Assembly: GCF_030315685.1 (NCBI RefSeq)
Contig: NZ_JASXSI010000001.1
Location: forward strand, 62,001-126,000
Source: Gordonia sp. ABSL11-1
Lineage (GTDB): Bacteria; Actinomycetota; Actinomycetes; Mycobacteriales; Mycobacteriaceae
Length of the DNA: 64,000 nucleotides
Direction of reading: 5' to 3'
Below, piece after piece: positions 6,658 through 27,323 of this stretch. Under the pieces are notes generated by a model. That model did not search any database. It saw only the letters and a list, made by a program, of their open reading frames with translations, and was not told where the DNA came from. A program made the translations under genes and the position numbers. Each line of letters starts with the position of its first letter. The first letter of the stretch is position 1.

Positions 6658-8034
6658 TCAGCCTCCGACGGCGTCGGCGCCGTGCGCCGCTGCGCGTGCG
6701 GTCGGTGTCCGGCCGGATGAGGCCCGGTCCCGTGCGACGGCTCGGACGATCTCACCGGTCCGGACGGCCACGTTGGACAGCAGCGACGACGAGATGCCGT
6801 GCGTGTGTTCGGTGCCGCCCTGCAGGTAGATCGATCCCTCGGTGGTGGCGGTCCGGGTGATCAGTCGGTAGTCGCGGGTCACCGCCGGGCCGCCGTCCTC
6901 GGTGACGACGTCGGCGGCCAGGTCGCCGAGGACCGCACCCAGATCCATCTGATGGAAGCCGGTGGCGCACACGACGGCATCGCAGACGAGGTCCTCGGTG
7001 AGGCCGGTGGGCTCGTGCGCCACCGTCACCACGACGCCGTCGCCGCGGTCGTCCACGCGGAGCGCCCGGGACGCGCCGTGCATGAAGAGCCGCCGCTCGC
7101 CGGACACACGTTCCGCGTATTCGCGGGCGTAGAGCTCCTCGATCAGCGGCAGGTCGACCGCCGAGTAGTTGGTGGCGCGGTGGTAGGACATCAGTCGACG
7201 TCGGAAGTCGGGTGTCGACGAGTGGAAGTCGTCGACGGCGCTCGGATCGAAGATCCGGTTGGCGTACGGGCTGTCGTCGGCCGGGCTGTACCCGTACTTG
7301 GCGAACACGGCGTGGACCTCGGCGTCCGGATGCGTGGAATGGAGATACTCCACCGTCTCGGCCGCGCTCTGCCCGGCGCCGAGGACGACGAACCGGCCGT
7401 GACGGGGTGTGGGGAGATCGGCGAGCCGACCGAGGAGATCATGGTTGTGGAACACCCGCACCGACGGCGTGACACCCTCGGGCAGGCGCGCGGTGAGGCC
7501 GGTGGACACCACGACGTTGCGGGCCCGGACGACGCCGGCGCCGACCCCGGCCAGGGTGACCTCGAAGTGGTCGTCGACCGGGCGGACGGCGGTGGCCGTC
7601 GTCGCATAGGTGACGGCGGCGCCGACGGTGCGTGCCGCCCACTCCAGGTAGTCGTGGAACTCGTGTCGAGTGGGGAAGAAGGTCTGGTGATTCACGAAGT
7701 CGATCAGCCGTCCCTGGGCGGCGAGATAACTCAGGAACGAGTACCGGCTGTGCACATTGCGTTGGGTGACCAGGTCCTTGAGGAACGAGATCTGCATGGT
7801 GGTGCGGGGCAACAACATTCCGGTGTGCCAGCCGAATCGGTGCTGGCGCTCGACGAACCCGAGGGTCAGCGGTGGCCCGGCGTGCTCGGCGTTGTACTCG
7901 GCCGCCGCGATCGCGAGTCCGAGGTTCGAGGGGCCGAACCCGACACCGAGGACGTCGACCGGGCCGGGGTCGTCGGTGCCTGATGCGCCGTGCAGCGTCG
8001 GTGTCTGATGGTGGCCGGGGGCTGAGTCGTTCAT
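6658..8034 (-). CDS. L-ornithine N5-monooxygenase (siderophore hydroxylase)
   Basis: A 458-residue flavin N-hydroxylating monooxygenase of the SidA/PvdA/IucD family, which converts the side-chain amine of ornithine (or lysine) to a hydroxylamine using FAD, NADPH and oxygen. Visible motifs are the FAD site GVGFGPSN near residue 30, the NADPH site VLGAGQSA, the substrate-loop stretch MQISFLKDL, and ATGFH near the C-terminus. The stretch around GRLIDFVN is closer to ornithine than to lysine hydroxylases by recollection of SidA. The ATG overlaps the upstream transporter stop as ATGA, making it the last gene of the coupled NRPS operon. It should supply N5-hydroxyornithine for formylation and assembly; the amine donor is inferred, not proven. 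Confidence 0.9.
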   Translation of the reverse strand: MNDSAPGHHQTPTLHGASGTDDPGPVDVLGVGFGPSNLGLAIAAAEYNAEHAGPPLTLGFVERQHRFGWHTGMLLPRTTMQISFLKDLVTQRNVHSRYSFLSYLAAQGRLIDFVNHQTFFPTRHEFHDYLEWAARTVGAAVTYATTATAVRPVDDHFEVTLAGVGAGVVRARNVVVSTGLTARLPEGVTPSVRVFHNHDLLGRLADLPTPRHGRFVVLGAGQSAAETVEYLHSTHPDAEVHAVFAKYGYSPADDSPYANRIFDPSAVDDFHSSTPDFRRRLMSYHRATNYSAVDLPLIEELYAREYAERVSGERRLFMHGASRALRVDDRGDGVVVTVAHEPTGLTEDLVCDAVVCATGFHQMDLGAVLGDLAADVVTEDGGPAVTRDYRLITRTATTEGSIYLQGGTEHTHGISSSLLSNVAVRTGEIVRAVARDRASSGRTPTARAAAHGADAVGG

Positions 8035-9971
8035 CGGTGATCCTCGGGATGGTCGTGCGGGGGAGGCTGTTGGTGGGGGTGGATGGACGGGTGGGGGTGA
8101 CTGGACGGGTGGGGGTGACGACTGGATGGGTGGGGGTGGATGGACGGGTGGTGGGGGCGGTGATCCGGGTGGGGAGGTACGGCGTCGGAGGCGGAGGCGT
8201 CTCCGGACACGGTGGGCCCCGCCCACGCCGTCCACAGACGGGTCAGATGTCCGCCGGCGGCGATGAGGTCGTCGGGGGTTCCGTATTCGATGACGCTTCC
8301 GCCGTCGAGGACCGCGACCGCATCGGCGGACCGGATCTGACTGAGGCGGTGGGCGATGATCACGGCGGTTCGTCCGGCGATGGCGATGTCGGCGGCCTCC
8401 TCGAGTTCGACGGCGTGGTGGCTGCCCGCTTCCGCGGTCGCCTCGTCGAGGACGACGACCCGGGGGTCGGCGAGCAGGAGCCGCGCCAGCGCGACCTGTT
8501 GGGCCTGGGCGTCGGTCAGGCGGTAGCCGCCGTCTCCGACGACGGTGTCGACTCCGTCCGGCAGCGCGTGCACCCAGTCGGTGGCGCCGACCCTGCGCAA
8601 CGCCTTCTCGGCCTCGGCGGCCGACGCGTCGGGAGAGGCCAGCCGGAGATCGTCGATCAGTGGCCCGGCGAAGACATGCACCTCCTGGCTGACGGTGTAG
8701 ACGCTGTGGTCGCCCCCGACGACCACGCGACCGGCGTCCGGGATGAGCGTGCCGCCGACGATGCCGGCGATCGTGGACTTGCCGGCACCGCTCGCGCCGA
8801 CCAGGGCGAGACTGCGTCCCGCCGGGACGTGCAGGTCGATCCCGCGCAGGACCGGCCGTCCGGTCCGGTAGGAGAAGCCGACGCCGTCGAGGGTGAGGTC
8901 GGCGGGGGCGTGCGCGTCGGACGCAGAGGTCGGGTGCGCAGCTCCCCGCTCGGCCTGGGTGACGCCGATGAGGCGGGCGAGGCCGGCGGCGGCGAGCTGC
9001 AGATCGGCGGCGCTGTAGAGGATCATGCCGATCGGATTGAAGAGTCGGTGGAACATCAGTGCGGCCGCCGTGGTCGCACCGACTGTTGTCGCCCCGGACG
9101 ACACCGCCCAGTAGCCGACGACCAGAATCGCTGCCAGACCGGCGAACTCGGCCCGGTTGACGCGGCCGACGAGTTGGGTGAAGAGAGCGAACGCCGCCAT
9201 CGCCAGGTCTCGGGTGCGGCCGGATGTACGGGCCACCTCGCCGAGGGCCCAGGTCTCGGCGGCGTAGGCGCGGACGGTGTCGCGTCCGCCGATCGTCTCC
9301 ACGAGTGCATGCGCACGGTCGGCGGCAGCGCGGCGTTCCGCGGCGTAGACCGGACCGGAGCGGGGGAGATACCACCGCAGTGCGACGACGTAGAACGGAA
9401 CGGCCAATGCGCCGGCGAGTCCGAGTCGCCAGTCGAGGCCGAGCATCGCCACCAGGGTGACTCCCGCCAATGCGACAGCGGTGACGACCGTCGGCAACAC
9501 GGTGGTGACCGCGCGGTTGACGGCGGTCACGTCGTTGCTCACCCGCGAGAGCAGATCGCCGCGGCCGGCGTCCTCGATGAGATCTCGGCGCATGTGCAGC
9601 GCACTCGTCAGGGCCGCCTCCCGCGTGTCCGCGAGCAGGTCGGCGCCGAGGTGGGCGACTGCATGCATGGTGGCGCCCGCGGCGAGGCCGCCGATGAGTG
9701 CGGCCACTCCGGCGATGGCGGCGATGGGGATCAGCGTCGACACGGCAGCGTGCTCGGTGACGCGATCGACGAGGACCCCGAGGGCGAGCAACGGCACCAC
9801 GCCGGCGACGGCGGCGACGACACACAGCAGGAGCACCGACGACGACCGCACCGGGCGCCGACGAAGGCCTTCGGCGAGGTGCCGCAGGGTCTGGCGTGCC
9901 GTGGCGATCGGCAGGATCACGGTTCCGCCGATCGGATCGGCTGATCCCGCGAGGTCGGGCGGGTCGCTCAT
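8031..9971 (-). CDS. ABC exporter-fold half-transporter with intact Walker motifs and degenerate signature
   Basis: A 646-residue fused membrane-ATPase half-transporter: six membrane segments over about residues 30-320, then a nucleotide-binding domain. Walker A (GASGAGKST), the Q-loop region, Walker B with its glutamate (VVVLDEAT) and the H-loop (IIAHRLSQI) are all intact. The signature reads LTDAQ in place of LSGGQ. That is the mirror image of its partner gene, so the two should form a heterodimer with one working ATP site. It overlaps its upstream partner (ATGA at 9968-9971) and the downstream hydroxylase (ATGA at 8031-8034). About 50 C-terminal residues form a His/Pro-rich tail. Likely role: export of the siderophore, or uptake as for exporter-fold IrtAB and YbtPQ. 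Confidence 0.9.
   Translation of the reverse strand: MSDPPDLAGSADPIGGTVILPIATARQTLRHLAEGLRRRPVRSSSVLLLCVVAAVAGVVPLLALGVLVDRVTEHAAVSTLIPIAAIAGVAALIGGLAAGATMHAVAHLGADLLADTREAALTSALHMRRDLIEDAGRGDLLSRVSNDVTAVNRAVTTVLPTVVTAVALAGVTLVAMLGLDWRLGLAGALAVPFYVVALRWYLPRSGPVYAAERRAAADRAHALVETIGGRDTVRAYAAETWALGEVARTSGRTRDLAMAAFALFTQLVGRVNRAEFAGLAAILVVGYWAVSSGATTVGATTAAALMFHRLFNPIGMILYSAADLQLAAAGLARLIGVTQAERGAAHPTSASDAHAPADLTLDGVGFSYRTGRPVLRGIDLHVPAGRSLALVGASGAGKSTIAGIVGGTLIPDAGRVVVGGDHSVYTVSQEVHVFAGPLIDDLRLASPDASAAEAEKALRRVGATDWVHALPDGVDTVVGDGGYRLTDAQAQQVALARLLLADPRVVVLDEATAEAGSHHAVELEEAADIAIAGRTAVIIAHRLSQIRSADAVAVLDGGSVIEYGTPDDLIAAGGHLTRLWTAWAGPTVSGDASASDAVPPHPDHRPHHPSIHPHPSSRHPHPSSHPHPSIHPHQQPPPHDHPEDHR
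8071..8157. repeat. G-rich tandem repeat encoding a His/Pro-rich protein tail
   Basis: About four 18-21 bp units close to GGGTGGGGGTGGATGGAC lie inside the 3' end of the half-transporter gene. On the coding (minus) strand they specify HPHPS-type units. The plus strand has closely spaced G3 and G5 runs that could form a G-quadruplex. Repeat number is probably variable between strains. Confidence 0.85.
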
Positions 9972-11836
9972 CGGTCGGCCCTCCGGTGGGACCGAGCGCT
10001 CTCGGGCGCCGTCGGCTGGTCCGGTCCACCGGGGATGTCGCGCGTGGCGACGACCCGGTCGGCGACCGCCGCCCACGCGGGGCTCGTGGTCACGACCACG
10101 GTCGTCCGGTCGTGGCGGACACCGTGCCGCCGCGCATGCACCACCCGCGCGATCGTGCTCTCGGTGACCGAGTCGACCGCGGTCGTGGGCTCGTGGAGGA
10201 CGAGCACGGCCGGGTCGGTGAGCAGCGCACGGCTCAACGCCAGGCGCTGCCGCTGGCCGCCGGAGAGCGACTGCCCCCGATCGGCGACCGGAAGCGACCA
10301 CGCCACATCGGCATCGGCATGTCGGGTGACGGCGTCGTCGGTGGCCGGGGAGCCATCGGTGGGGAGGGCATCGCCGGCGGGGAGAGCGCCGTCGATGATG
10401 TCCCGACTCCCCATGGCCCTCAGGAGATCCAGAGCGTCGCGCCGGTCGATGGCGGCCCGGCCGAGGGTGAGATTGTCGCCGATGGTGCCGGTGAAGAGGT
10501 CGACACGGTGGGGTTCGACGAGCAACCCGCCGGGGCGGACGTCGGTCGGGAGATCGCTCGCATCCCGGCCCGGCATCGCGGCCCGGCCGGACACCGCGGC
10601 CCGTCCGTCGTGGGGTTTCTGGACCCCGCCGAGCAGCTCGACCACGCGCTGCGCCGAACGTGCGGTCGGTGCGGTCACGACGACGAGTTCGCCGTCAGCG
10701 ACCCGGACCTCGCCGACCTCGTCGACGATGTCGATGACCGGGCCGTGCGGGGAGTGGATATCGGGGACCGCGTCGGGCAGCGGCCGGCCGGAGAACTGCC
10801 GGTCAGGTAGCCGTTGGGCAGGCGACGGCTCGGCATGCGACGGCTCGGCAGCCGACGGGGAACCGCCGCCGATCACCGATGCCACCCGTGCGGCCGACGC
10901 GCGGGCCGTCGCGACGCGACCCGGGAACATCGCGAGCAGCGCGAGCGGCTCGGTGAGGAACTGGGCGAGTCCCAGGACGGCGATGAGAGCGCCGACGCTG
11001 ATGCGGTCGGTGAGGGCGAACCATCCGGTGAGCGTCGCGACCGCGACGGCGAGCACGCCGGTCACGCCGGTCGCCGTGCCGAAGAACGTGCCGTGTCCGA
11101 TCGCAGCCCGCTGCATGGCCGTACGGGCGTCGTCGTTGACCGCTCGATAGCGGAGTGCGGCAACTGATTCGGCGCGGATACCCCGTAACGGCCGCAACCC
11201 GGTGATCAGGTCGGTGGCGATCGCGGTGGCGCGGCCGATGTGGTGCTGCTGCGTGCCGACACGACGGGTCACGATCGGCGTGACGATCTGTACGAGGGAC
11301 AGCGCGAGCGGCACACCGATCAGCACGATCACACCGAGCACGACGTCGACCGAGAGCAACGCGACCGCACATGCTGCCAGAGCGGCGACGGCCGAGCCGG
11401 TCTGCGGGACGAACCGCAACAGATTGCCCGTCTCGTCGGCGTCGGAGTTGGCGATGGACAGTACGTCCCCGGATCGGCGGCCAGGGTCGTGCGACACTCG
11501 GGTCAGGACCGACTCCGCACATCGCATCCGCAGTCGATGGGCCTCGTCCTGGGTGGTCTGCATGGCTGCCCGCGCGCCGAGACGGTAGGAGATCGTCAAC
11601 GTGACGAACACTGCGGCGAGCACGCCGATCCACGCCGACAACGCAACCGGGTCGGTCGTGGCGATGGCCCGGTCGACCATCACGCCGATCAGCACCGGCA
11701 CCGCGACCTCGCAGAGCTGATGGACCGACATCAGTGCCGTCGCCGCGACGAGACGCCCGCGGTGGATGCGCACGCCCTCACGGAGGAGGCGGGTGCCGGT
11801 GGCGGGTTCCGGTGCGGTGTGGTCGGCGGCCACCAT
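9968..11836 (-). CDS. ABC exporter-fold half-transporter with a degenerate ATPase but intact LSGGQ
   Basis: A 622-residue half-transporter with a six-helix membrane domain (about residues 30-310) and a C-terminal nucleotide-binding domain that lacks key residues. The Walker A position reads APTARSAQRV, with no Gly-Lys-Ser/Thr. Walker B reads VLVLHEPT, with His in place of Asp, and the H-loop histidine is gone (VVTTSPAW). The signature LSGGQRQRLALSRALL is perfect. Paired with the downstream half, it would complete one ATP site and leave the other dead. Between the domains is a linker of AEPS-like repeats near residue 330. The start is chosen at ATG 11836 because it shares its A with the NRPS stop (TGATG); in-frame codons upstream lie inside the NRPS gene. 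Confidence 0.9.
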   Translation of the reverse strand: MVAADHTAPEPATGTRLLREGVRIHRGRLVAATALMSVHQLCEVAVPVLIGVMVDRAIATTDPVALSAWIGVLAAVFVTLTISYRLGARAAMQTTQDEAHRLRMRCAESVLTRVSHDPGRRSGDVLSIANSDADETGNLLRFVPQTGSAVAALAACAVALLSVDVVLGVIVLIGVPLALSLVQIVTPIVTRRVGTQQHHIGRATAIATDLITGLRPLRGIRAESVAALRYRAVNDDARTAMQRAAIGHGTFFGTATGVTGVLAVAVATLTGWFALTDRISVGALIAVLGLAQFLTEPLALLAMFPGRVATARASAARVASVIGGGSPSAAEPSHAEPSPAQRLPDRQFSGRPLPDAVPDIHSPHGPVIDIVDEVGEVRVADGELVVVTAPTARSAQRVVELLGGVQKPHDGRAAVSGRAAMPGRDASDLPTDVRPGGLLVEPHRVDLFTGTIGDNLTLGRAAIDRRDALDLLRAMGSRDIIDGALPAGDALPTDGSPATDDAVTRHADADVAWSLPVADRGQSLSGGQRQRLALSRALLTDPAVLVLHEPTTAVDSVTESTIARVVHARRHGVRHDRTTVVVTTSPAWAAVADRVVATRDIPGGPDQPTAPESARSHRRADR

Positions 11837-14800
11837 CACGGTTGCTCTCGGTGTGCGGCAGACGATTGGGCGGCGTCGGACCGGGACAGGTGTGCATCGA
11901 TGCGGGGACCGATCGTGGCGAGGGTCTCGTAGGAGCACATCTGCCAGTGCGTCGACGCGACCGAGTCCGCGTCGATCACACCCTCGATGTGGGCGTCCCA
12001 GCCGCCGCGGTCTGCGGCGAGGTGCATGCGGTCCGGATCGGCGCCGATGTACAGGAGATCCACTGCGACGGCGGCCGGTCGGTGCTGCGTCAGCAGACCG
12101 TGGGTGTGGGCGGCGGCCTCGATCAGATAGGTGACGGTGTCACCGTGGATGCCGACGGGAGCGTCTTCGATGTGCGCGAGCAGCTCGTTGACCGCGTCCG
12201 CCGAGACGGGATCACCCGGGCTCGCGCCGGTGTCGAGGGACTGATGGTCGAGACCCAGTGCGCCGAGCAGATCGTCCATCCGCAGACCTGTCGGCGCCGG
12301 ACGGCCCGTACTCGCCGGAGCCACGCTGTCGAGCATGGTCAGCGACGCCACGGTCTCGTCGTCGGCGATCAGACGAGAGGCCATGGCGTGGGCGATGACT
12401 CCACCCATCGACCAGCCGAGCAGATGGTAGGGACCGGTCGGCTGGACCCGCCGGATCTCGTCGACGTACCGGCCGGCCAGGTCGTCTATCGACGCGACGT
12501 CGGTGACGGGGTCGTCGCCGGTGATACCCGGCACTTGGACGCCGTAGAGAGGGCGGTCGGTGATGTGGCGCGTGAGACCGCCGTAACCCCAGGACAGTCC
12601 GATCGCCGGGTGGATGCAGAACAGCGGCGCACCCGAGCCGCTGGCACGGATCGGCAGGAGGGTGCCCAGGGCGGCGTCCTGGGCGACGGGTTCGGGATCG
12701 TCGAGGAGGCGGGCCAGTCCGCGAGGGGTGGGGTCGTCGAGGACAACGGAGATCGGGAACGGGACCCCGACCCGATCGCGCAGCCGGGCGACCAGGGCGA
12801 AGGCGGACAGCGACGTCCCGCCCATCGCGAAGAAGTCGTCGTGGACACCGACCCGGTCCACGCCGAGCGCCGTGGCGAACTCGTCGGCGACGAGTTGCTC
12901 GGAGTCGGTGGCCGGCGGCTCGAAGGGGCGCGAGGAGACGACATCCGGTGCGGGCAGGGCGCGCTCGTCGACCTTGCCCGACGGCGTCGTCGGGATCCGG
13001 TCGACGATCACGATCGCGGACGGGACCGCATATCGGGGGAGCGAGGACCTCAGCGCGGCCAGGATGTCGACCGGCCGTGGGTGCCCGGGTGCCGCCGCCG
13101 CGTCGGCGACGACATATCCGACGAGGTGGGCGGAGGACTGCGGGCCGGTACGTCCGACGGTGACCGCATGTCGGACACCGGGATACCGCATGAGTGCGGC
13201 GTCGATCTCGCCGAGCTCGATCCGGTGGCCGCGGATCTTCACCTGACGATCTGCGCGCCCGAGGTACCGGAGTGAGTCGTCGTGCGAGACCGACACGAAG
13301 TCGCCGGTGCGATACATGCGGTCACCGGGTGCGCCGAACGGGTCGGCGACGAATCGCTCCGCAGTCAGCCCGAATCGGTCGTGGTATCCGCGGGCCAGCC
13401 CGGGTCCGGCGACGTACAGCTCGCCGACGACGCCGCGGGCCACGGGACGCAGTGCCCGGTCGAGGACCAGCAGCGCGAACCCGATGACCGGACGGCCGAT
13501 GGTCACCGGCTCGCCGGCTCCCACGGCAGCCGCATCGAGCTCGGCGACGGTCGCGATGTCGGTGGCCTCGGTGGGGCCGTAGCCGTTGCGCATCGCACGG
13601 CCCGGTCCCCATCGCAGCACCAGTTCCGGACCCACGGCCTCGCCGCCGGTTCCCAGGACCCGCAGGCGTTCGAGCTCCGATGGTTCGGTCACCGACAGCA
13701 GCGCGGGCGGCAGGACGGCGTGGGTCACCTGCTCGCGGTCGATGAGATCCGGCAGTGCGTCGGGTCCCTGTTCGGGATCGCTGACGACCAGGGTCGCCGA
13801 TGCGGAGAGCGCGGCGAGGAGTTCGCCGATCGACATGTCGAAGCTCGGAGAACTGTTGTGCAGGTAGCGGGCCGACGGCTCCACGAGGTACCGCAGTCGT
13901 CGTTCGGTCGCGAGGTTGGCGAGCCCGTGGTGGGTGACGACCACACCCTTGGGCCGACCTGTCGAACCCGAGGTGTAGATCATGTAGGCGCCGTCATCGA
14001 CACGGTCGGAGGTCGCCGGGAGCTCGGACGCCGGTCCCCGCTCGAGGTCGTCGAGGACGGCGTCGTCGAGGACGATCCAGGCCACGTCATCGGGGAGACC
14101 GGATCGCGTCGGGCGATCGGTGATGCCGATGCGTGCTCGGCAGTCGCCGAGCATGAACGAGATCCGGTCGGCCGGATACGCCGGGTCGATCGGCACGAAG
14201 GCCGCACCGGTCTTGGCGACGGCCCACGTCGACAGGACCGAGTGGGCGCTGCGCGACAGCGCGATCGCGACGAAGGTGTCGGGCCCCGTCCCGGCGGTGA
14301 TCAGCTTCTCGGCGAGCGCATCCGACCATCTGTCTGCTTCGGCATAGGTGAACGAGGTTCCGGCCCATCGGATCGCGATGTTCTCGGGAGCGCGGTCGAC
14401 GGCGCGTCGGACGATCTCTCGCAGCGTCAGCGGCGATTCGGGATCCGCACCACGCAGCGGGACCAGATCACGTCGTTCCTCCTGCGTCAGCACCGGGATC
14501 GATCCGGCGGCGATGGTGGGGTCGTCGACGACTGCACGCAGGATCTGCTCGAAGCGCACCGCGATGTCGCGAACGGTCCTCTCCGGCAACGCGTCCTGTC
14601 GGTATCCGAAGGTGATCCGCGGTTGCGGGTGCAGGGTCACCGTGAGGCTCAACGGATAGTGGGTGAGCTCGTCGGTCACGATGTCGACGACGCGGACACC
14701 GTCGACCGGCGTGGACGCACTCATCGTGGCGGCATCGATCGGATAGGACTCGAACACGACCAGGGTGTCGAACCGGGCTCCGTCCCCGGCGGCCCGGTGG

Positions 14801-17800
14801 ATATCGGTGAGGCCCAGGTACTGGTGATCGAGGATCGACGCCTGGGTGTCGTGAAGGCGTCGCCAGACCTGCTCCACGGCGTCATCCGGCCGAGCACGCA
14901 CCCGGACCGGCAGGGTGTTGATGAACAGGCCGACGATGTCGGCGACGCCCTCGACGTCGGCGGGCCGGCCGGAGACGGTGGCGCCGAAGGTGACGTCGGT
15001 GCCGCCATCGTCGGTGCGGGACTCGGTCAGACGTCCGAGCAGCAGTCCCCAGAGGCCCTGGATGACGGTGTTCGGGGTGACCTCGGCCGCGGTCGCCTGC
15101 GCGATCATCCGATCCCAGAGTGCGGCGTCGAGGTCGACGACGATTCTCCCGGGAGTCGGTGGCGCGGTCGAGGGATCATGTTCCGGCGCGAGAAGAGTGG
15201 GCAGTGATACGTCGTCGAACGCCTGCCGCCAGGCCTCCGTCGACCGCGAGACATCTTGTCGGGACATCCATTCGAGGAAGGCCCGATAGGACGGGGCCGG
15301 ACCCAGGAGCTCCGCCACCGACGGGCCGGCCGTGTAGCAGCTGAGCAGATCACGCAGCAGCAGCGGCATCGACCAGCCGTCGACGACGATGTGGTGCAGC
15401 GTGACGATGAGGTCATGGAGCTCGCCGGCCCGGCGGACGAGGGTGAACCGCAGCAGCGGCGGGCGATCCAACGTGAACGGCCGGGACAAGTCCTCGGCGC
15501 GGACGGCGGCCGCGGTCACATCGACACCGCCGGCCGTCGAGGTCAGATCGACGTGCCGCCAGCCCGGGGTGCAGCCCTCGACGACGACGGCGACGAGATC
15601 GCCTCGGGCGGTGGGAACGAATGCCGACCGGAGGGCCGGATGGCGGGCCACGACCTCGTCGGCGGCGCGACGCACCCGCTCGGGGTCGACCGGACCCTCG
15701 AGCGTCACCACGGCCTGCGAGACGTAGACGTCGCTGCGGTCGGCCGCCCGCACCGGCCCGGTCGAGGCGGTCAGGGCCGAGTGGAAGGCGAAGCCCTTCT
15801 GCAGCGGCGCGGTCGGCCACACATCGGAGAGCCCCGGGAAGCGTCGCGCCAGCAGGTCCAGATCGGGCTGATCGACCGGGGCCGGCGCGACATCCGACGG
15901 TGTCCATCCGTGTGCGCCCGCGCGGACCGCTGCGTCGACTTCCTGCAGAGCGGTGCGCCAACCGGACGCGATCCGAGCGGCGGCGTCCGACGTGATCAGG
16001 CGGTCGACATGATCGAGGGTGGCCTGCAGGGTCGCGGGCTCCTCCGCGGCGCCGATGACGATCGCGTTGACGTCCAACGGGACCGCCGCGGGCATGTCGC
16101 CGTCGGGCCGGAGTTCGAGAGTCCCGACGGTCTCGGTGGGTACCCAGCCGATCTCGGCGACCCCGGCGGGAAGCTGTGCGCTCGACACCCGCCCCAGATA
16201 GTTGAACCCGACCGTCGCCGCGATACTCGGGATGTCGCGGGCCGAGAGATACCGTGCCACACCGTATCCCGCGCCGCGCGTGGGAACCCGACGGATCGCC
16301 TCCTTCGCGATCTTGACGGCGGCGATCGCTCGCTCGGCCGCGGGTGCGGCCGCTGCGGCGACGAGATCCACCGAGACCGGGTAGGCGGCGGTGAACCATC
16401 CGACGGTCCTCGACAGGTCGGCGCCGGGCACCAGATCGTCCTCACGCCCATGGCCTTCGAGTTGCACCACCGGATCGCTGATCCCCGCATCGGCGACGGC
16501 GACCATCAGTGTGCCGAGCAACACTTCCTCGGCGGTGGCGTGCAGGGCGATCGGTACGGCGTCGACCGCCGCGCGGGTCAGATCGGCGTCGAGGGAGAGC
16601 TCGACCCGCGAGACGGTCGACATGACGTCGCGCACGGTATCGAGCGCCATGTCCGGCACCCGCGAAATGTCGGCGAAATGCTCTGTCCAGTAAGTGCTCT
16701 CGGCATCGGCGATCGCATCGGCACGTTCGGTGAGTGCGTGCGCCCAGCGACGCAGCGACGTACCGGTGTCGGGCAGCGTCGGCGTGCGGCCGTCGGCGAC
16801 GGCGGTCCACGCGGTGATCAGATCGGGCACCAGGATTCGCCAGGACACACCGTCGACCACGAGATGATGGACGGCCAGGACCGCCAGGTCTCGCAGAGGT
16901 GCGGTGCGACGCAGCCAGACGAGATGCACCATCCTGCCCGACCGGGGATCGAGACGGGTCAGCGCCGAATCCAGCGCGGCCTGGGCCGCCGCGCGCGGGT
17001 CGCCGTCGCCGATGTCGTGTGTGCTCAGCACCGCATCCGGATCCAGGGGAGAGGTCGGCGGGATCTCCAACCGGGGTTCGGAGGCCCCGTCGGCCAGCCG
17101 GGCGCGCAGAGCGTCATGCCGGTTGATGACGGTTGTCAGCGTCGCCAGAATGCCTTCGCGGGTGATGCCGTGCGGGAGTTCGAGGACGAGATGCTGCGCG
17201 TAGCGGTCGATCCCGCCGGGCCGATCGAGCAGCCAGCGCATGATCGGTGTCGTCGGGAGCGAGCCCACTCCGCCGCCGTCGAGTTCGGCGAGTCGGGGTC
17301 GGTCGTCCGTCGTGGCCATGGTGGCCAGCGCGCGTACGGTCTTGCGTTCGAACACATCTCGCGGAGTGATGTGCAGTCCCGCGGCGCGGGCCCGGGACAC
17401 CAGGGTCAGGGCGGCGATGCTGTCGCCGCCGAGCCCGAAGAACGAGTCGTCGGCGCCGACGCGGGCGACCCCGAGGACCTCGCCGACGACCTCGGCGAGC
17501 GTCTGCTCCGTCGGCCCGGACGGCGCACGGTAGGCGACATCGGCGGAGAATGTCGGCAACGGCAGTCGCGCGTGATCGAGTTTGCCGTTCGCCGTGCGGG
17601 GCAGTTCGTCGAGCACCACGAAGGCATCGGGGGACAGACCGGTCGGGAGTCGGGTCTCGCAGTGCTGTCGCAGAGCCGACACATCAGCGGTGGCATCGGC
17701 CACGACATAGGCGACGAGCCGCGGACCGAGATCGGTGTCGCGCACCGTGACCACGCTCTGCGTGACAGCCGGGGCGCCGCCGACGACGGCCTCGATCTCG

Positions 17801-20466
17801 CCGAGCTCGATACGCCGGCCGCGGATCTTGACCTGGTTGTCCGACCGTCCGTGGTAGCGCAGTTCGCTTGTGGCGCCGTCGCTCCCGGTCCAGCTGACGA
17901 CGTCGCCGGTGCGATACATCCGGCCGCCGGCATGCCAGGGGTTCGCCACGAACCGGCCGGCGGTCAGATCGGGACGACGGTGATAGCCGCGGGCGACGCC
18001 GGGGCCGGCGACATACAGTTCCCCCCGCGTGCCGGGCAGGACCGGCCGGAGCCGGGAGTCGAGGACGAGGAGTTCGAAGCCGTGCACGCCGCGTCCGATC
18101 GTGACCGGTCGGTCGGCGTGCAACTCGGCGACCGTGGAGATGTCGGTCGCCTCGGTCGGGCCGTAGCCGTTGCGCATCGAGCGCCCGGGCGCCCACCGGC
18201 GGACGAGATCGGTGGTGACCGCCTCGCCGCCGACGCCGAGCATGCGGAGCCCGTCGAGGTCGGTGACGTCGAGTGTGGCAAGCACCGTCGGGGTGAGCAG
18301 GGCGTGCGTCACCCCGGTGTCGCGGATCAGGGCCGCGAGTTCGGCGGGTGTGAGACCGGGGGGCGCGACGACGAGTCCGGCTGCCGCGGACAGCGCCGCG
18401 ATCTGCTCGCCGACAGCCATGTCGAAACCGGGCGACGTGTTGTGCAGGAACCGCGACGAGGGCTCGACCCGATATCCGATCCGGCGCTCGGCGGCGAGGT
18501 TCGCGATCCCGTGGTGGGAGACGACGACGCCCTTCGGCCGGCCCGTCGACCCGGAGGTGTAGATGAGGTACGCCGGTTGCTCGAGCCGGAGCGGCGTGCG
18601 CGGACGAACGGGAGTAATAACGGGAGTAATGACGTCGGAGTGGGTGGCAACGGCCGGATTCTTGCCGACGACGTCGGCGACCGCGATGTCGTCGAGCACG
18701 ATCCAGTCGACGTGATCGGGGAGTCGGTCGCGGAGTGCCGCGGTCGTGACGCCCACCGTCGCGCCGCTGTCGTCGAGCATGAACGCGATGCGTTCGGTGG
18801 GGTAGTCGGGGTCGATCGGGACGAATGCCGCACCGGTTGCCGCGACCGCCCACATCGCGCGGACGGAGCCCGGTGATCGTGGCACGACGACCGCGACGAA
18901 CTCCTCGGGTTCGGCGCCCGCGGCGATCAGGCGATCCGCGAGTCGGGCTGCCTGCATCCACGTCTTCCGGTACGAGAGCGTGCCGTCGGGGTGGACAATT
19001 GCGTCGCCATCCGGATTCGCCTCCACCGCAGTCGATATGAGGCGCGCGAGCGTGATCGGTTCGACCGAGGGTCGTCCGGTCGCGGGGACGAGCGCGGCGC
19101 GTTCGGGGCCGGTGAGGATGTCGATGTCGCCGATGCGGTCACCGGCGGCGGCGTCGGCCAGGTGGTCGAGCACACGGACGAGACGCCGGTGGTGATCGTC
19201 GAGGGTCTGCTGGTCGTACAGAGCATGATTGGCGTGCAGGTCGACCTGCATCGCGCCGCCTGCGCCCGGGTGGACGCTGATCGTGAGATCCGCCACCGGT
19301 CCGGTGGACAGCACCGAGAAGTGGCCCTGCACCGGGCCCAGGGCGATGTCGGTCGGGAAGTTCATGATGTTGATCGTCGGCCCGTAGAGTCCGCCGAGTG
19401 ACGGGCTGTCGCCCTGACCGCCGAGCTCGCGCAGGAGATCTTCGCTCCGGTAGCGCTGATGTCGCAGAGCGCCGGTCAGTTCCAGCGCCACGGCGCGGAC
19501 CAGGTCGCCGATCGTCGTGTCGGGGCGGATGCGCAAGCGGATGGGGACGACGTTGGAGACCATGCCCGCGGAGCGTCGCAGGACCGCATTGGTGCGGGCC
19601 GTCACCGGGAGGCTGAGGACGACGTCCTCGGTGTCGGTGGCCACGGACAGATAGGTGGCGACGGCGGCCACGATCAGGGCGGCTTCGATGCTCCCGTGGC
19701 GCTCCGCCGCGCCCGCCAGGCGCTCGGCGAGGTCCGACCCGAAGGGGCCACCCGCCCGGATGGGGACGATGTCGGGCACGGCGGCTCCGTCGGCGAGCGA
19801 GATGGGCTCGGGGAGATCCGCAGCCTTCGCCACCCAGTGGTCGCGGTCGGTGCGGAAGCGTCGGGACCCACGGTAATCTCTTTCCGCAGTGAGCAATTCG
19901 GTCAACTCGGGTGCCGAGTAGCCCGCGTCGTCCGCGTCGGACAGCAACGCGGAATAGAGTTCCGCGGCACGGTTGATGAACCGGATCGCGCCATATCCGT
20001 CGACGACGATGTGGTGGATGCACGAGTACCAGAACCAGTGGTCGTCGCCGAGTCGCAGTACGGCGCCACGGATCAGGCGATCCTCGAGTAGGTCGAACGG
20101 CGCTGTGTAGTCGGCTCTCATCCACTCGTGTGCCGCCGCGACCGGGTCGGCACGGTCGCGGAGGTCGATCCGGGCGAACGCCTCCGACTGGGTGTGATCG
20201 ATCACCTGGAACGGTTCGCCGTCGATCTCGACGAGCCGGAGCATTCCGCTGCCGACGTCATGCAGGCCGCGCCGGCACACCTCGTCGAGCAGATCCACGT
20301 CGAGTCCGCCGGTGAACTCGATGACGTCGGCGATGACGATCGGGACCTCGGGCAGCAGATGCTGGGCGAACCAGATCCCTCGTTGGGCGGCGGTCAGCGG
20401 GAACGGCTCGCCCACCGTCGCGGTAGGGGAGTCAGACGGGACACCGTCGTATCGGCCAGACGTCAT
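11836..20466 (-). CDS. Two-module non-ribosomal peptide synthetase with epimerase and thioesterase (siderophore)
   Basis: A 2876-residue synthetase ordered C-A-T-E-C-A-T-TE. Approximate residues: C1 18-440 (HHIVVDG near 151, EntF-like start), A1 470-960 ([11 protein letters not shown] near 639), T1 near 1012 (GGDS), E 1075-1500 (HHLVVDG near 1200, EGHGRE), C2 1530-1960 (HHIVVDG near 1694), A2 1990-2490, T2 near 2548 (GGTS), TE 2600-2860 (GWSMGG near 2684). By-eye specificity residues are D-M-G-L-G-G-G-D-I for A1 and D-M-G-V-G-G-G-D-I for A2, so both modules probably load the same amino acid, with module 1 giving the D form. Neighbouring hydroxylase and formyltransferase genes suggest formyl-hydroxyornithine; this is inference. 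All catalytic motifs look intact. The N-terminal C domain implies an acyl or aryl starter, or an iterative cycle. No MbtH-like gene is in the window. GAGGAAG precedes the ATG. Confidence 0.93.
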
Positions 20467-20509
20467 GTACTTCCTCGCGGTCCCGGACGCGCTACCCCGG
20501 CCCAGCGCC

Positions 20510-20528
20510 TCAGGTAATCGTAACCTTG
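20510..20528. promoter_or_regulatory. Candidate IdeR/DtxR iron box upstream of the NRPS operon
   Basis: The core AGGTAATCGTAACCT (20512-20526) is an imperfect palindrome with AGGT and ACCT ends. It matches 11 of 15 core positions of the mycobacterial IdeR consensus TTAGGTTAGGCTAACCTAA. It lies 44 bases upstream of the NRPS ATG, inside the divergent promoter region, where an iron-loaded repressor would block transcription. The match was made by eye. Confidence 0.55.
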
Positions 20529-20534
20529 CAAAAG

Positions 20535-20553
20535 TCAGGGTTGCATATCCTCA
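20535..20553. promoter_or_regulatory. Second, weaker iron-box-like element near the formyltransferase promoter
   Basis: TCAGGGTTGCATATCCTCA matches about 12 of 19 positions of the IdeR consensus, with AGG and CCT arms. It sits between the better box and the formyltransferase start, so it may control the divergent gene. The rest of the 20467-20648 gap shows no gene. Confidence 0.3.
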
Positions 20554-20648
20554 CCCGGTCGGCAAAGGTGGGCGTGGATCGATCGCACGGCCCGCGACGA
20601 TCGCGAGCTCATCGACTCTCCGCCCGTTCTCCGACATGAGGTTCATCC

Positions 20649-21584
20649 ATGCGCGTCGTCACCTTCGGCTACCAGACGTGGGGGCACAAGACCCTCGAGG
20701 CCCTCATCGACTCGCGACACGACGTCGTGTTGTCGGTGACCCATCCGCCGAGTGAGCATTCCTACGAGACGATCTGGTCGGACTCGGTCGAGGAGTTGGC
20801 CCGCGCGCACGACATCCCCGTCCATCTGGCCCAGCGGCCGGATGCCGACCTGATCGCCCGGGTCAAGGCCGCCGAACCCGACATCATCGTGGCCAACAAC
20901 TGGCGGACGTGGCTGCCGAGCGAGCTCTTCGACCTCCCGCCCCACGGCACGCTCAACCTGCACGACTCGCTGCTGCCCAAGTTCACCGGCTTCTCACCGG
21001 TCATCTGGGCGCTGATCAGTGGGGAGTCCGAGGTGGGTCTGACCGCGCACCGGATGGACGACGGCCTCGACACCGGAGACATCGTGCTGCAGAAGTCGGT
21101 GCCGATCACCTCGACGTCGACCGCGACGGAACTCGTGCGCGCCACCATCGACATCATCCCGGAGGTGCTCACCGAGGCGCTGGAGTTGATCGAGACCGGC
21201 ACCGCGGTGTGGACCCCTCAGGATCTCGCCGCGCGGACCTTCTTCCACAAGCGTGCCGACAGCGACTCGCGCATCGACTGGACATGGCCGGCAGACCAGA
21301 TCGACCGGCTGATCCGGGCACAGTCCGATCCGTACCCGAATGCCTACACGCATTTCCGGGGGGAGCGGATTCGGGTGACGAAAGCCTCGGTGTCGCAATG
21401 CATCTACGGCGGTACTCCCGGCCGTGTCTTCATCCACGAGGGCGACGGGATGGTGATCGTCGCCGGTGCGGACGCCCATCTCGGCCGCAACCGGGGTCTG
21501 GTGATCGAGCGACTGCGCACCGACGACGGGGTGGAGCACGACGGGAAGAGGTTCTTCCCGCACGGGGGCGGCTACCTCGGCTGA
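20649..21584 (+). CDS. Formyltransferase for N5-hydroxyornithine (methionyl-tRNA formyltransferase fold)
   Basis: A 311-residue member of the formyltransferase family that uses 10-formyl-tetrahydrofolate. The catalytic triad aligns with E. coli Fmt: Asn103 and His105 in NLHDSLLP and Asp141 in GLDTGD, followed by a C-terminal OB-like half. Its position, divergent from the NRPS operon and sharing the iron-box region, argues for siderophore tailoring rather than initiator-tRNA formylation. Known parallels are Rft of the rhodochelin pathway and the coelichelin enzyme, which formylate N5-hydroxyornithine. A housekeeping fmt would normally sit beside def or rsmB, neither of which is here. ATG at 20649 follows a GAGG element. 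Confidence 0.85.
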   Translation: MRVVTFGYQTWGHKTLEALIDSRHDVVLSVTHPPSEHSYETIWSDSVEELARAHDIPVHLAQRPDADLIARVKAAEPDIIVANNWRTWLPSELFDLPPHGTLNLHDSLLPKFTGFSPVIWALISGESEVGLTAHRMDDGLDTGDIVLQKSVPITSTSTATELVRATIDIIPEVLTEALELIETGTAVWTPQDLAARTFFHKRADSDSRIDWTWPADQIDRLIRAQSDPYPNAYTHFRGERIRVTKASVSQCIYGGTPGRVFIHEGDGMVIVAGADAHLGRNRGLVIERLRTDDGVEHDGKRFFPHGGGYLG

Positions 21585-22223: not shown

Positions 22224-22982
22224 TCAGCGCCAGTCAGTGAGCAGTTCGGTGGCCCGTTCGGCGAGATTCATCTGCCACAGCGGTCCGAAGCTGACCCGGC
22301 CGACACCCAGCTCGGCGAAGTGAGCGCGGGAGCCCTGCGCGGGATTGCCGATCGCGTTCACCGGCAGCGGCAGTTCGGCGGTCAGCCGGCGCTGGACGTC
22401 GTCGGAGTGGAAGCCCACGGGATACAGCGATCGCGCCCCGGCGTCGGCGCACAGGCGCAGTCGCGAGATGGCGAGGTCGACACGGTCGGCCTCCTCGCCG
22501 ACCTGCTTGAGGAACACGTCGGTGCGAGCGTTGACGACCAGCGGCACTCCGGCGCCGTCGGCCGCCTGGCGGAGTGCGCCGACGAGATCGGCGTGTTCGG
22601 TGGCCTCGCGAAGCCGCCCGCCCTCGGAGTGCACGGTGTCCTCGATGTTGAGTCCGACGGCACCGGCGTCGAGAAGTCCCTCGATGAGGCGTTCAGGGGT
22701 CTCCCCGTACCCCGATTCGATGTCGACGGACAACGGGACGTCGACCGCGCCGCTGATCTGGCGCACCCGGGTGAGCAGTTCGTCGAACGTCATGCCCTCG
22801 TTGTCCGCGCGTCCGATCGAATCCGCCACCGGATGGCTGCCGATGGTCAGCGCGGCGAATCCGCCCTCGACCGCCAGTCCGGCCGACCAGGCGTCCCACA
22901 CGGTGGGAAAGACGCCGGGATCGCCCGGACGGTGCAGATCGAGCAGTGCCTGTGCCGAGGTCGCGAGATCACGAGTTGCCAT
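22224..22982 (-). CDS. Isocitrate lyase / PEP mutase superfamily enzyme
   Basis: A 252-residue TIM-barrel protein of the PEP mutase/isocitrate lyase family (oxaloacetase, methylisocitrate lyase, phosphonopyruvate hydrolase relatives). The metal-binding and loop motifs are visible as VDIESGYG and GLNIEDTVH, with VNARTDVF further along. The classical isocitrate-lyase KKCGH catalytic loop is absent, so it is not a true glyoxylate-cycle enzyme; the substrate cannot be told from sequence. Its ATG lies inside the last codons of the upstream binding-protein gene (14-base overlap), so the two are coupled. Confidence 0.85.
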   Translation of the reverse strand: MATRDLATSAQALLDLHRPGDPGVFPTVWDAWSAGLAVEGGFAALTIGSHPVADSIGRADNEGMTFDELLTRVRQISGAVDVPLSVDIESGYGETPERLIEGLLDAGAVGLNIEDTVHSEGGRLREATEHADLVGALRQAADGAGVPLVVNARTDVFLKQVGEEADRVDLAISRLRLCADAGARSLYPVGFHSDDVQRRLTAELPLPVNAIGNPAQGSRAHFAELGVGRVSFGPLWQMNLAERATELLTDWR

Positions 22983-24003
22983 CGAGGGAGCCCTTCACGT
23001 CGTTGAGTACCAACCATGCTGCCGACAATCCTGCTCCGCCGTACCAGATCTGGTCGTCGACTGCGAGAACCCGTTTCCAGGTCGGCGCACCCATGTCGAG
23101 CCAGCGGTCGCTCTCGAGGACCTCCTTGCCGTGTTCCAGGCCGCGGTCACCCTGGAAGCTGACGTAGATGAGGTCGCCATCCGCGTCCGTGAAGTTCTTG
23201 TCGGTGACCGTGAACGACTGCGGCGACCGTTGCGATTCGGGGCGCTGCACACCGATGTCAGCGAGGATCCCGCCGGCGAACGAGCCGGTACCGGCGATCA
23301 TCTCCGAGTCGCCGGTGAACCGGACGAGCGACACCTGATTGTGTTGCGCATCCATGCGCAGTCCCGTCTTCTGGGCCTCGGTCCGGAACTCCTCGAGTAA
23401 CCGGGCGCCGGTCTCCGGGCGACCGAGGCCGTCGGCGACGGACTGGAATCGCGCCTGCCAGTCGGCCGACGGTGCGACAGTGACGACCCGGGCGTCCGGG
23501 AAGGCGGTCGAGGAGCCGGTGGTCCGGGGTGTCGTGAGGACGACGTCGGGCGCCGCCGCCGACGCCGCTGCGGCATCCGGGGTGCTCCCGATCGTGGGCA
23601 CCGAGGTGAGTTGGGGCCCGAGGTAGGCCGGAACCGAGCCGGGGCCGGCGGTGACGGCGACGACCTCGGGACCGAGGCCGAGGGCGCAGACGGCGTCGAG
23701 CAACGACGGGTCGGTGACGACGATGCGTGTGACATCGGTCTGTCCGGCGTCGGGGGCGGTCGGTGCCAGGCAGGTCTTCGACAGGTCGCGGTCGGCGTTG
23801 ACGATGTTCACCTCGGCGACGCGGGTGGTGACCGTCGAGATGGGTGACCCGTCGGGTGTGGTGAGCGGTCCCTCCTCGCTGCAGCCGGCGAGTACGGCGA
23901 CCGCACAGGCCGTCACGGCGATCGCCCGGGGGACGACCCCAGGCGTGCGGAGACGGCGGGTGGGACGGACCGTGTGAACCGGGGTTTCGCCGCTGCGCTG
24001 CAC
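22969..24003 (-). CDS. Iron-siderophore-type ABC substrate-binding lipoprotein (FecB-like)
   Basis: A 344-residue exported lipoprotein. A basic N-terminus and hydrophobic stretch end in the lipobox VLAGC, with lipidated Cys41. The rest is a two-lobed periplasmic-binding fold of the iron-complex class. The gene order binding protein, ctaD, serB2 mirrors fecB-ctaD-serB2 (Rv3044-Rv3042c) of M. tuberculosis, where FecB has been linked to heme and carboxymycobactin handling. No permease or ATPase is adjacent, so it must work with a transporter encoded elsewhere or with the exporter-fold pair in the siderophore operon. No iron box was found in its upstream region. Confidence 0.85.
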   Translation of the reverse strand: MQRSGETPVHTVRPTRRLRTPGVVPRAIAVTACAVAVLAGCSEEGPLTTPDGSPISTVTTRVAEVNIVNADRDLSKTCLAPTAPDAGQTDVTRIVVTDPSLLDAVCALGLGPEVVAVTAGPGSVPAYLGPQLTSVPTIGSTPDAAAASAAAPDVVLTTPRTTGSSTAFPDARVVTVAPSADWQARFQSVADGLGRPETGARLLEEFRTEAQKTGLRMDAQHNQVSLVRFTGDSEMIAGTGSFAGGILADIGVQRPESQRSPQSFTVTDKNFTDADGDLIYVSFQGDRGLEHGKEVLESDRWLDMGAPTWKRVLAVDDQIWYGGAGLSAAWLVLNDVKGSLDGNS

Positions 24004-24150
24004 GCGAACACGCTAGCACCGGCGCGACCGTGCACCTCCTGTGCGCACACGGGTGCCGCGGAGGGTGGTCGGCAGACCCGCTCACAGGCCCCGCGAGTCG
24101 CCCGTCCCAGATACCCTGAACTGGGTGTTTCCCACCGTCCCGGAATGAAA

Positions 24151-24164
24151 TACGACGGATCGTA
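24151..24164. promoter_or_regulatory. Short inverted repeat in the fecB-like/ctaD divergent region
   Basis: TACGA-CGGA-TCGTA is a perfect five-base inverted repeat in the 286-base gap between the two divergent genes (24004-24289). It could be an operator or chance. No other gene or structure is seen in that gap apart from the ctaD ribosome-binding site. Confidence 0.25.
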
Positions 24165-24289
24165 GGACCCGTTCGGCCACCGCCCCTTCGAGGGTTTAGG
24201 ATCAGTAACCAGCGCTCGTTTTGTTCATGTGGCGACCGAGGGGAAACGGCAGGTGACCGGCCCCGTTGGTTGCGCAACGAGGAGGATCT

Positions 24290-27323
<3,034 letters not shown>

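What the first reader, a model, noticed from the sequence alone, without database searches (positions are those of the whole stretch)
6658..21584. Two-module hydroxamate siderophore pathway with a D,L twin-residue design
Seen: a coupled operon NRPS (C-A-T-E-C-A-T-TE), two half-transporters and an ornithine-type N-hydroxylase, with a divergent Fmt-fold formyltransferase. Known: hydroxylase plus formyltransferase pairs make N5-formyl-N5-hydroxyornithine in rhodochelin and coelichelin. Inference: the product unit is D-fhOrn-L-fhOrn, which is only tetradentate, so the TE may dimerise it or form a diketopiperazine, or the starter C domain may cap it with an acyl or dihydroxybenzoyl group made elsewhere. 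This two-module layout matches no siderophore synthetase I can name.
Basis: partly seen in the sequence, partly recalled or inferred. Interest (0 to 1): 0.75.

Follow-up and report, generated by a model that had tools for sequence, protein, structure and literature searches.

The report
Acyl-primed two-unit hydroxamate siderophore synthetase
This Gordonia gene cluster most likely makes a small iron-scavenging molecule in which a fatty acid is joined to two copies of the same iron-binding amino acid, and related bacteria carry one-, two-, three- and many-unit versions of it.

Summary
11836-20466 (-) encodes one intact C-A-T-E-C-A-T-TE synthetase, coupled to two half-transporters and an N-hydroxylase, with a divergent Fmt-fold formyltransferase. 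Both A domains carry nearly one pocket code (DMGLGGGDIK, DMGVGGGDIK). An iron-box-like site lies between the divergent genes.

At least 19 sampled genomes have such a cluster (Gordonia 7, Williamsia 8, Millisia 1, Aldersonia 1, Antrihabitans 2), with one, two, three or many modules. A DMG-code A domain is the one A type in all of them.

The starter C domain nests among Rhodococcus/Nocardia starter domains, apart from dihydroxybenzoyl (DHB) starters. Its acyl-length gate is Ala in 14 of 14 family domains against 1 of 12 aryl-type ones. No clear entA (DHB synthesis) was found in 8 of 8 Williamsia and 3 of 3 Aldersonia/Antrihabitans carriers. Best reading: acyl-D-fhOrn-L-fhOrn, probably released as a free acid; acylation would exclude a diketopiperazine.

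Not proven: that DMG means N-formyl-N-hydroxyornithine rather than its lysine homologue or another residue, that the starter clade uses lipids, and the release chemistry. No exact known product was found. New variant of a known kind.

The parts
6658..8034 (-). flavin N-hydroxylase (Lys/Orn monooxygenase family), last gene of the operon
   Evidence: PF13434 299.8 bits; start at 8034; PDB MbtG 443.7 bits, KtzI 359.3 bits
8031..9971 (-). ABC half-transporter 2: Walker A and catalytic Glu present, signature motif degenerate
   Evidence: PF00664 + PF00005; ATG at 9971; motifs
9968..11836 (-). ABC half-transporter 1: canonical LSGGQ signature, no Walker A
   Evidence: PF00664 + partial PF00005; motifs; start codon overlaps the NRPS stop
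11836..20466 (-). two-module NRPS, 2876 aa, C-A-T-E-C-A-T-TE
19102..20421 (-). C1: starter condensation domain, gate residue Ala ([10 protein letters not shown])
17557..19071 (-). A1, pocket code DMGLGGGDIK
17317..17541 (-). T1 carrier domain
   Evidence: PF00550
15937..17271 (-). E: epimerization domain ([10 protein letters not shown]), residue 1 becomes D
   Evidence: grouped with other E domains in the tree
14452..15846 (-). C2: condensation domain of the type that follows an E domain
   Evidence: within the family 40-60% (86% in OPL2) to C domains after E, 23-29% to others
12937..14436 (-). A2, pocket code DMGVGGGDIK; 52% identical to A1
12682..12921 (-). T2 carrier domain
   Evidence: PF00550
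11836..12651 (-). TE: terminal thioesterase (GWSMGG)
   Evidence: PF00975 91 bits
20512..20526 (+). iron-box-like palindrome AGGTAATCGTAACCT in the divergent promoter region
   Evidence: only match in 64 kb with up to 1 mismatch, 0 of 100 shuffles had one; at most one mismatch upstream of 6 of 7 Gordonia clusters
20649..21584 (+). Fmt-fold formyltransferase, 311 aa, divergent
   Evidence: PF00551 + PF02911; 51-97% relatives
22969..24003 (-). Peripla_BP_2 binding protein; possible ferric-siderophore receptor (membership in the cluster is inference)
   Evidence: PF01497 36.4 bits, cut-off 27.5

Best explanation
An iron-regulated lipopeptide siderophore pathway. The hydroxylase and formyltransferase make N-formyl-N-hydroxyornithine (fhOrn). 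The starter C domain joins a medium- or long-chain fatty acyl group, probably from acyl-CoA, to fhOrn on T1. E turns that residue to D. C2 joins it to a second fhOrn on T2. The TE releases acyl-D-fhOrn-L-fhOrn, most simply as a free acid: an amphiphilic bis-hydroxamate that offers four donor oxygens. The ABC heterodimer exports it. Shown here: domain order, intact motifs, near-identical A codes, operon structure, the iron-box-like site, linkage of formyltransferase, NRPS and hydroxylase in the sampled carriers, placement of C1 with Rhodococcus/Nocardia starters, and the open acyl gate. Inferred: fhOrn as the substrate, lipid use by that starter clade, the acyl donor, linear release, iron regulation, export.
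For: Linkage: in 19 of 19 genomes where I found this formyltransferase beside a C1-type NRPS, that NRPS has at least one DMG-code A domain. Three rows are weaker: G106 has gapped codes, and G328 and G307 have interrupted NRPS frames. Millisia brevis has just one module, C-A[DMG]-T-TE, with both tailoring genes beside it. The hydroxylase follows in 17 of 18 assessable clusters. Cap: in a 119-sequence C-domain tree 14 family starters nest inside 67 starters from Rhodococcus, Nocardia and relatives (joint clade 1.0; nested clade of 19, 0.98), apart from a group of 12 aryl-acid starters (0.90). Solved C domains score RzmA 213, CDA 181, EntF 162 bits. The residue that gates acyl length (R148 of RzmA, A149 of HolA; passages of PMC7804268) is Ala in 14 of 14 family and 60 of 67 relatives, but in 1 of 12 aryl starters; position 138 is Ile in 14 of 14. 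DHB: no clear entA in 8 of 8 Williamsia, 3 of 3 Aldersonia/Antrihabitans and Gordonia G321; entA is not significantly commoner in cluster-bearing Gordonia (5 of 7) than in the rest (27 of 52; Fisher p 0.44). Iron box.
Against: The two characterised lipid starters in the tree, RzmA and CDA, fall outside the family's clade and are no nearer to the window's C1 (3.04, 3.08) than several DHB starters (2.88 upward), so lipid use by that clade is inferred. NCBIfam scores C1 best with MxcG (283 bits) and EntF (192), both DHB synthetases; its four hits held no lipopeptide-starter model. The own genome carries entA and a DHB-type ligase. The DMG code also occurs in Rhodococcus/Nocardia NRPSs with no formyltransferase or hydroxylase in the fetched stretch; those genomes have a formyltransferase elsewhere, but two genomes with DMGLCGGDIK have none. 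Own A domains are 51% to some A domains with hydrophobic codes (L212, L213), little below 53-57% to the Rhodococcus/Nocardia DMG domains, and 36-40% to DINYWGGIGK domains, the fhOrn code as I recall it. G321 has a different second code, DMLLVGGVIK, and G328 has no hydroxylase within 10 kb after ABC2. The hydroxylase is nearer to MbtG than to KtzI. MbtH genes were found only on contig C46; I did not scan every window gene for an acyl ligase. Two hydroxamates give four, not six, donors.
Confidence: 0.5

Rival explanations
1. DHB-capped, hexadentate version: C1 takes DHB from the heterobactin-like cluster on contig C100, giving DHB-D-fhOrn-L-fhOrn, a mixed catechol-hydroxamate like mirubactin.
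For: Own genome has an EntA-like gene, a DHB-type AMP ligase (FPMSSPG...EGLVC) and an EntS-like exporter at C100; 5 of 7 cluster-bearing Gordonia and Millisia have entA; a catechol would complete six donors; MxcG and EntF are the top NCBIfam models for C1.
Against: The family persists without a clear entA in 8 of 8 Williamsia, 3 of 3 Aldersonia/Antrihabitans and G321; C1 lies outside the aryl-starter group and has the open acyl gate; entA is not enriched in carriers.
Confidence: 0.18
2. The unit is N6-formyl-N6-hydroxylysine, not ornithine; otherwise the same acyl-D,L-bis-hydroxamate.
For: Hydroxylase 53% to MbtG, named a lysine N6-monooxygenase, 47% to the ornithine enzyme KtzI; related formyltransferases (58-64%) sit beside A domains with codes of the DALHxGxVxK kind, 3 of 5 of them with a salicylate-type ligase seen nearby; the DMG code differs from the recalled fhOrn code.
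Against: The hydroxylase groups with that of L050, whose NRPS has the code I recall as hydroxyornithine, DMENLGLINK; several formyltransferases at 52-73% are beside NRPSs with the recalled fhOrn code (L051-L057).
Confidence: 0.13
3. TE-driven oligomer: C1 loads a 3-hydroxyacyl chain and the TE links units through it, giving a cyclic depsipeptide with six or more donors; the one-module Millisia enzyme would make a trimer.
For: Would explain how a one-module C-A-T-TE enzyme with hydroxylase and formyltransferase could make a useful chelator (L039); by recall, serrawettin W1 synthetase is a single C-A-T-TE module whose product is a cyclic dimer.
Against: The TE was not tested; linear release is simpler; multi-unit products are not needed for the two-module enzyme to bind iron.
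Confidence: 0.08
4. DMG codes select an ordinary hydrophobic residue; the NRPS makes a lipodipeptide and the hydroxylase and formyltransferase serve another pathway.
For: DMG domains in Rhodococcus/Nocardia chains without tailoring genes in the fetched stretch; two DMGLCGGDIK genomes without the formyltransferase; 51% identity to A domains with hydrophobic codes.
Against: Tailoring genes flank the NRPS in five genera and the hydroxylase is in its operon; in the window's genome the two other siderophore loci seen have their own hydroxylase-family hits, strong on C100 and weak on C13.
Confidence: 0.07

Closest known systems
Coelichelin / exochelin / rhodochelin / rhequichelin fhOrn pathways (rhodochelin: passages of PMC5550956 and PMC7347517; coelichelin formylation: PMC7347517 passage; the rest recalled)
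   Same: N-hydroxylase plus Fmt-fold formyltransferase feeding an NRPS; related formyltransferases at 52-73% beside DINYWGGIGK-code NRPSs (L051-L057)
   Different: Those NRPSs carry DINYWGGIGK and mostly Thr/Ser-type and hydroxyornithine-type codes; the family here has DMG codes and a different starter C domain
Mirubactin / chlorocatechelin (PMC9609785, passages)
   Same: Two ornithine-derived residues and a hydroxamate; small product
   Different: Two DHB groups and both residues D; DHB genes belong to the pathway. Here no clear entA is found in most carriers and module 2 has no E domain
Dimodular DHB-D-X-L-Ser synthetases VabF and CbsF (recalled, not compared)
   Same: C-A-T-E-C-A-T-TE layout with TE
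   Different: By recall a DHB starter and a Ser module; here both modules share one code and C1 is not in the aryl group
Rhodococcus lipopeptide-type NRPSs (humimycin and relatives described in passages of PMC5550956; that the loci here are humimycin-like is my label, not tested)
   Same: Closest C1 relatives; the R. wratislaviensis chain ends in the same DMG-E-C-DMG-TE tail (L113/L200)
   Different: Many modules, no hydroxylase or formyltransferase in the fetched stretches
Marine acyl-peptide hydroxamate siderophores such as amphibactins and marinobactins (recalled)
   Same: Fatty acyl cap on N-hydroxyornithine peptides
   Different: Gram-negative, N-acetyl, four or more residues

Membership tests
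Hydroxylase + formyltransferase (fhOrn) NRPS siderophore clusters | N-hydroxylase of the Lys/Orn family in the cluster | tested here: met
   PF13434 299.8 bits
Hydroxylase + formyltransferase (fhOrn) NRPS siderophore clusters | Fmt-fold formyltransferase beside the NRPS | tested here: met
Hydroxylase + formyltransferase (fhOrn) NRPS siderophore clusters | A domain with the fhOrn code DINYWGGIGK (recalled) | tested here: not met
   Codes are DMGLGGGDIK and DMGVGGGDIK
Lipid-initiated (starter-C) NRPS | First C domain groups with lipid starters | tested here: inconclusive
   Nested in 67 Rhodococcus/Nocardia-type starters (1.0, 0.98), whose lipid use is inferred; characterised RzmA and CDA lie outside
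Lipid-initiated (starter-C) NRPS | Small gate residue after HHxxxDGxG, needed for medium or long chains | tested here: met
   Ala, 14 of 14 (PMC7804268 passages)
Lipid-initiated (starter-C) NRPS | Acyl group in the product | not testable with these tools
   needs MS
DHB-primed synthetases (EntF/VabF kind) | Starter C in the aryl-acid group | tested here: not met
   profile scores point the other way
DHB-primed synthetases (EntF/VabF kind) | DHB synthesis genes accompany the synthetase | tested here: not met
   Present elsewhere in the own genome; no clear entA in 13 of 19 family genomes
DHB-primed synthetases (EntF/VabF kind) | Serine-specific last module (recalled) | tested here: not met
   A2 code DMGVGGGDIK
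Iron-regulated operon | IdeR/DmdR-type box upstream | tested here: met
   15-bp core AGGTWA-N3-TWACCT, 0 mismatches; the 19-bp consensus with up to 3 mismatches was not found

The most novel reading that the evidence does not exclude
A family of very short, lipid-primed hydroxamate siderophores in mycolic-acid bacteria in which module number sets how many identical chelating residues follow the fatty acid: one in Millisia, two (D,L or L,L) in Gordonia and Williamsia, with an extra spacer in other Williamsia, and the same pair ending long lipopeptides in Aldersonia, Antrihabitans and Rhodococcus. An A-domain code that I have not seen tied to a hydroxamate residue would mark them.
Probability: 0.4. 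Interest if true: 0.68.

Novelty: new variant of a known kind. Interest (0 to 1): 0.5.

Why it matters
If true, it adds a lipid-capped fhOrn class to Gordonia and Williamsia (the window's genome also carries mycobactin-like and heterobactin-like loci); it gives a new A-domain code to look for when mining for hydroxamates; and the one-, two- and three-module series is a natural experiment in how few chelating groups a siderophore needs.

Tried and rejected
My first working idea was a DHB cap (own genome has DHB genes and C1 matches EntF/MxcG profiles). I dropped it as the leading model after the entA survey, the C-domain tree and the gate residue. I first took entA-negative Gordonia G321 and G328 as two counter-examples. 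G328's NRPS frame is interrupted and no hydroxylase was found within about 10 kb after ABC2, so I rely only on G321 there (a fragmented assembly, about 260 contigs, so a gap is possible); G307's NRPS frame is also interrupted.

The first code extraction was off by one at position 278; codes are from then on. For the hydroxyornithine-type domains reads DMW where and the motif FDMSWEE give DME, so position 239 of that group is an alignment slip. The 19-bp IdeR consensus gave no match; the shorter 15-bp core did. Rfam found nothing at gathering scores. Full-text search for the code strings found 0 papers. Ten paper searches were run; from their listings no title or abstract start described this system, and only four papers were opened, by passages. 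Acyl-ligase neighbours as proof of lipid priming: 25 of 80 named loci have a candidate ORF, some of which are ends of NRPS frames; of five typed, two are acetoacetate-CoA ligases, two match a fatty-acid-CoA-ligase family and one weakly FadD11, the last three below cut-off, so this is weak. The tree's aryl group of 12 includes four heterobactin-like or unusual-ligase starters placed there by neighbourhood; the union of that group with RzmA has low support (0.28). Two relatives' domains and one non-starter family row were set aside before counting, and not every carrier's C1 was in the tree (14 domains). No structure was predicted.
Full report
WHAT IS THERE. The window lies in a 5.7-Mb genome of the genus that holds a near copy of the cluster in Gordonia sp. 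OPL2 (C1 91%), so it is a Gordonia. The NRPS at 11836-20466 (-) has C1-A1-T1-E-C2-A2-T2-TE, with intact motifs. It is followed by two ABC half-transporters and an N-hydroxylase, joined by overlapping stop and start codons. The Fmt-fold formyltransferase is divergent. The 182-bp gap holds AGGTAATCGTAACCT, the only match to AGGTWA-N3-TWACCT in 64 kb with up to one mismatch, none in 100 shuffles. A site with at most one mismatch lies in the same gap in 6 of 7 Gordonia clusters, 2 of 2 Antrihabitans and 1 of 1 Aldersonia, but in only 2 of 7 Williamsia loci examined and not in Millisia. The 19-bp consensus was not found.

THE TWIN RESIDUE. Codes were read by aligning each A domain to A1 at the ten GrsA positions; Ser (DVWHFSLVDK), Thr (DFWNIGMVHK) and Gly-like (DILQLGMIWK) codes, recognised from memory, came out of the same alignment, which calibrates it. 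A1 gives DMGLGGGDIK, A2 DMGVGGGDIK; the domains are 52% identical, so this is shared specificity rather than a fresh duplication. E in module 1 and a C2 of the post-E type give D then L.

THE FAMILY. Formyltransferase relatives above 50% identity occur in 75 of 151 family genomes (my count). Of 20 loci first fetched around them, 5 are of the present kind; of the other 15, 7 lie beside DINYWGGIGK-code NRPSs, 3 beside other NRPSs and 5 beside none that my queries matched. In all I found 19 genomes with the formyltransferase beside a C1-type NRPS: Gordonia 7, Williamsia 8, Millisia 1, Aldersonia 1, Antrihabitans 2; there may be more, since not every hit was fetched. Genus names come from matching contigs; G106 of the Williamsia group carries the record title Kitasatospora arboriphila. 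Layouts: Gordonia C-A-T-E-C-A-T-TE; four Williamsia the same without E; four Williamsia with an extra first module coded DAFVVGS(I/V)VK, the E domain seen in three of the four; Millisia a single C-A-T-TE; Aldersonia and Antrihabitans long chains ending in DMG-E-C-DMG-TE. All 19 have at least one DMG-code domain (G106's codes are gapped; in G328 and G307 the last letter of one code reads R). G321's second code is DMLLVGGVIK. The hydroxylase follows in 17 of 18 assessable clusters; it was not found after ABC2 in G328, and G321's contig ends first. NRPS frames are interrupted in G328 and G307.

WHY fhOrn. The tailoring pair stays with this NRPS across five genera while other modules change, and in Millisia the DMG module is alone. 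That is an argument by elimination, not a measurement. Against it, DMG codes also occur in Rhodococcus and Nocardia NRPSs where the fetched stretches show no such pair. Each genome in which I read a DMGxGGGDIK code has a formyltransferase somewhere, but so do most sampled members of those genera, two genomes with DMGLCGGDIK have none, and I did not read the codes of every genome in the list. Ornithine against lysine is open: the hydroxylase is 53% to MbtG and 47% to KtzI, and in the tree it groups with that of L050, whose NRPS carries the recalled hydroxyornithine code.

WHY AN ACYL CAP. In a 119-sequence FastTree the 14 family C1 domains nest in a clade with 67 starters from Rhodococcus, Nocardia and relatives, apart from 12 aryl-type starters that include EntF and actinobacterial domains beside DHB ligases. 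This does not by itself show lipid use: RzmA and CDA, the two characterised lipid starters, lie outside that clade and about as far from the window's C1 as several DHB starters do. Solved-structure scores rank RzmA and CDA above EntF; NCBIfam ranks MxcG first and EntF second, though it listed no lipopeptide-starter model. The more telling test is mechanistic. Passages of PMC7804268 show that residue 148 of RzmA gates acyl length: Arg gives C2, smaller residues up to C8-C10, with longer chains after further changes at 138 and 143. The family has Ala at 148 in 14 of 14 and Ile at 138 in 14 of 14; aryl-type starters have Ala at 148 in 1 of 12. EntA is clear in 3 of 14 genomes (own, Millisia, and G119, in which I found no such NRPS); 8 of 8 Williamsia and 3 of 3 Aldersonia/Antrihabitans carriers lack it. 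In 59 Gordonia genomes 32 have entA; of the seven cluster carriers five have it (Fisher p 0.44), and intact G321 does not, in a fragmented assembly. So DHB is available to the window's bacterium, from a heterobactin-like locus on contig C100, but the family as a whole does not seem to depend on it.

MECHANISM. Ornithine is hydroxylated and formylated. C1 acylates fhOrn on T1; E inverts it; C2 couples the second fhOrn; TE releases the product. With the amine acylated, a diketopiperazine cannot form. Linear release leaves four hydroxamate oxygens plus a carboxylate. Such tetradentate ligands bind iron in 3:2 complexes (rhodotorulic acid, recalled). A 3-hydroxyacyl chain would let the TE make cyclic oligomers; this is the boldest release model and untested.

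NOVELTY. Components are known; the combination of this starter, the DMG code and one to three chelating modules matched no named pathway in what I could see: ten paper searches (listings) and passages of PMC5550956, PMC7347517, PMC9609785 and PMC7804268. antiSMASH/MIBiG comparison was not available.

Noticed in passing
window 8031-11836: The half-transporters are complementary: ABC1 lacks Walker A but has LSGGQ; ABC2 has Walker A and DE but LTDAQ for the signature, leaving one complete ATP site. No Walker A was found in ABC1 of 16 of 16 loci (some the same genome twice); 9 of 10 loci scanned gave an ABC2 line, all 9 with Walker A and a degenerate signature.
   Followed up: partly
G000 contig C100 about 30-65 kb (L080, L081, L193): Second siderophore locus: EntA-like, DHB-type AMP ligase, EntS-like exporter, a weak enterobactin-binding-protein match, multi-module NRPS and another N-hydroxylase; looks heterobactin-like.
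   Followed up: partly
G000 contig C13 about 96-121 kb (L078, L079): Mycobactin-like locus with salicylate synthase and salicylate-type ligase; in G. hankookensis (L101) a salicylate-type ligase and an NRPS A domain lie within a few kb of the formyltransferase.
   Followed up: partly
L222-L225 (other Gordonia): Formyltransferase relatives (58-61%) sit beside DALHxGYVSK A domains, 3 of 4 with a salicylate-type ligase, suggesting formyl-hydroxylysine mycobactin-like products.
   Followed up: no
L082, L087, L064-L068 (Williamsia): Unusual aryl-AMP ligase with HSFAMRSPG in place of HNFPxxSPG-type motifs; in L082 it lies with a hydroxylase, ABC pair and a Thr-coded NRPS module. Its acid may be neither DHB nor salicylate.
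   Followed up: no
L200, L201, L202, L203: Long Rhodococcus-type NRPSs end in two DMG-code modules and a TE without tailoring genes in the fetched stretch; in L200 an arginase-family gene lies just downstream.
   Followed up: partly
G000 contig C46: Very large NRPS locus with an open frame of 18,315 aa and further long frames.
   Followed up: no
L048 (Williamsia faeni): Formyltransferase, hydroxylase, ABC pair, siderophore-interacting protein and an aspartate decarboxylase with no NRPS matched in the 20 kb.
   Followed up: partly
L102 / G106: A record titled Kitasatospora arboriphila NRRL B-24581 falls in the Williamsia group; perhaps a mislabelled strain or culture.
   Followed up: no
window 23258-26323 (-): A 1021-aa open frame with low-complexity translation, mostly opposite a cytochrome oxidase subunit I gene (24266-26071 +); probably spurious.
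   Followed up: no
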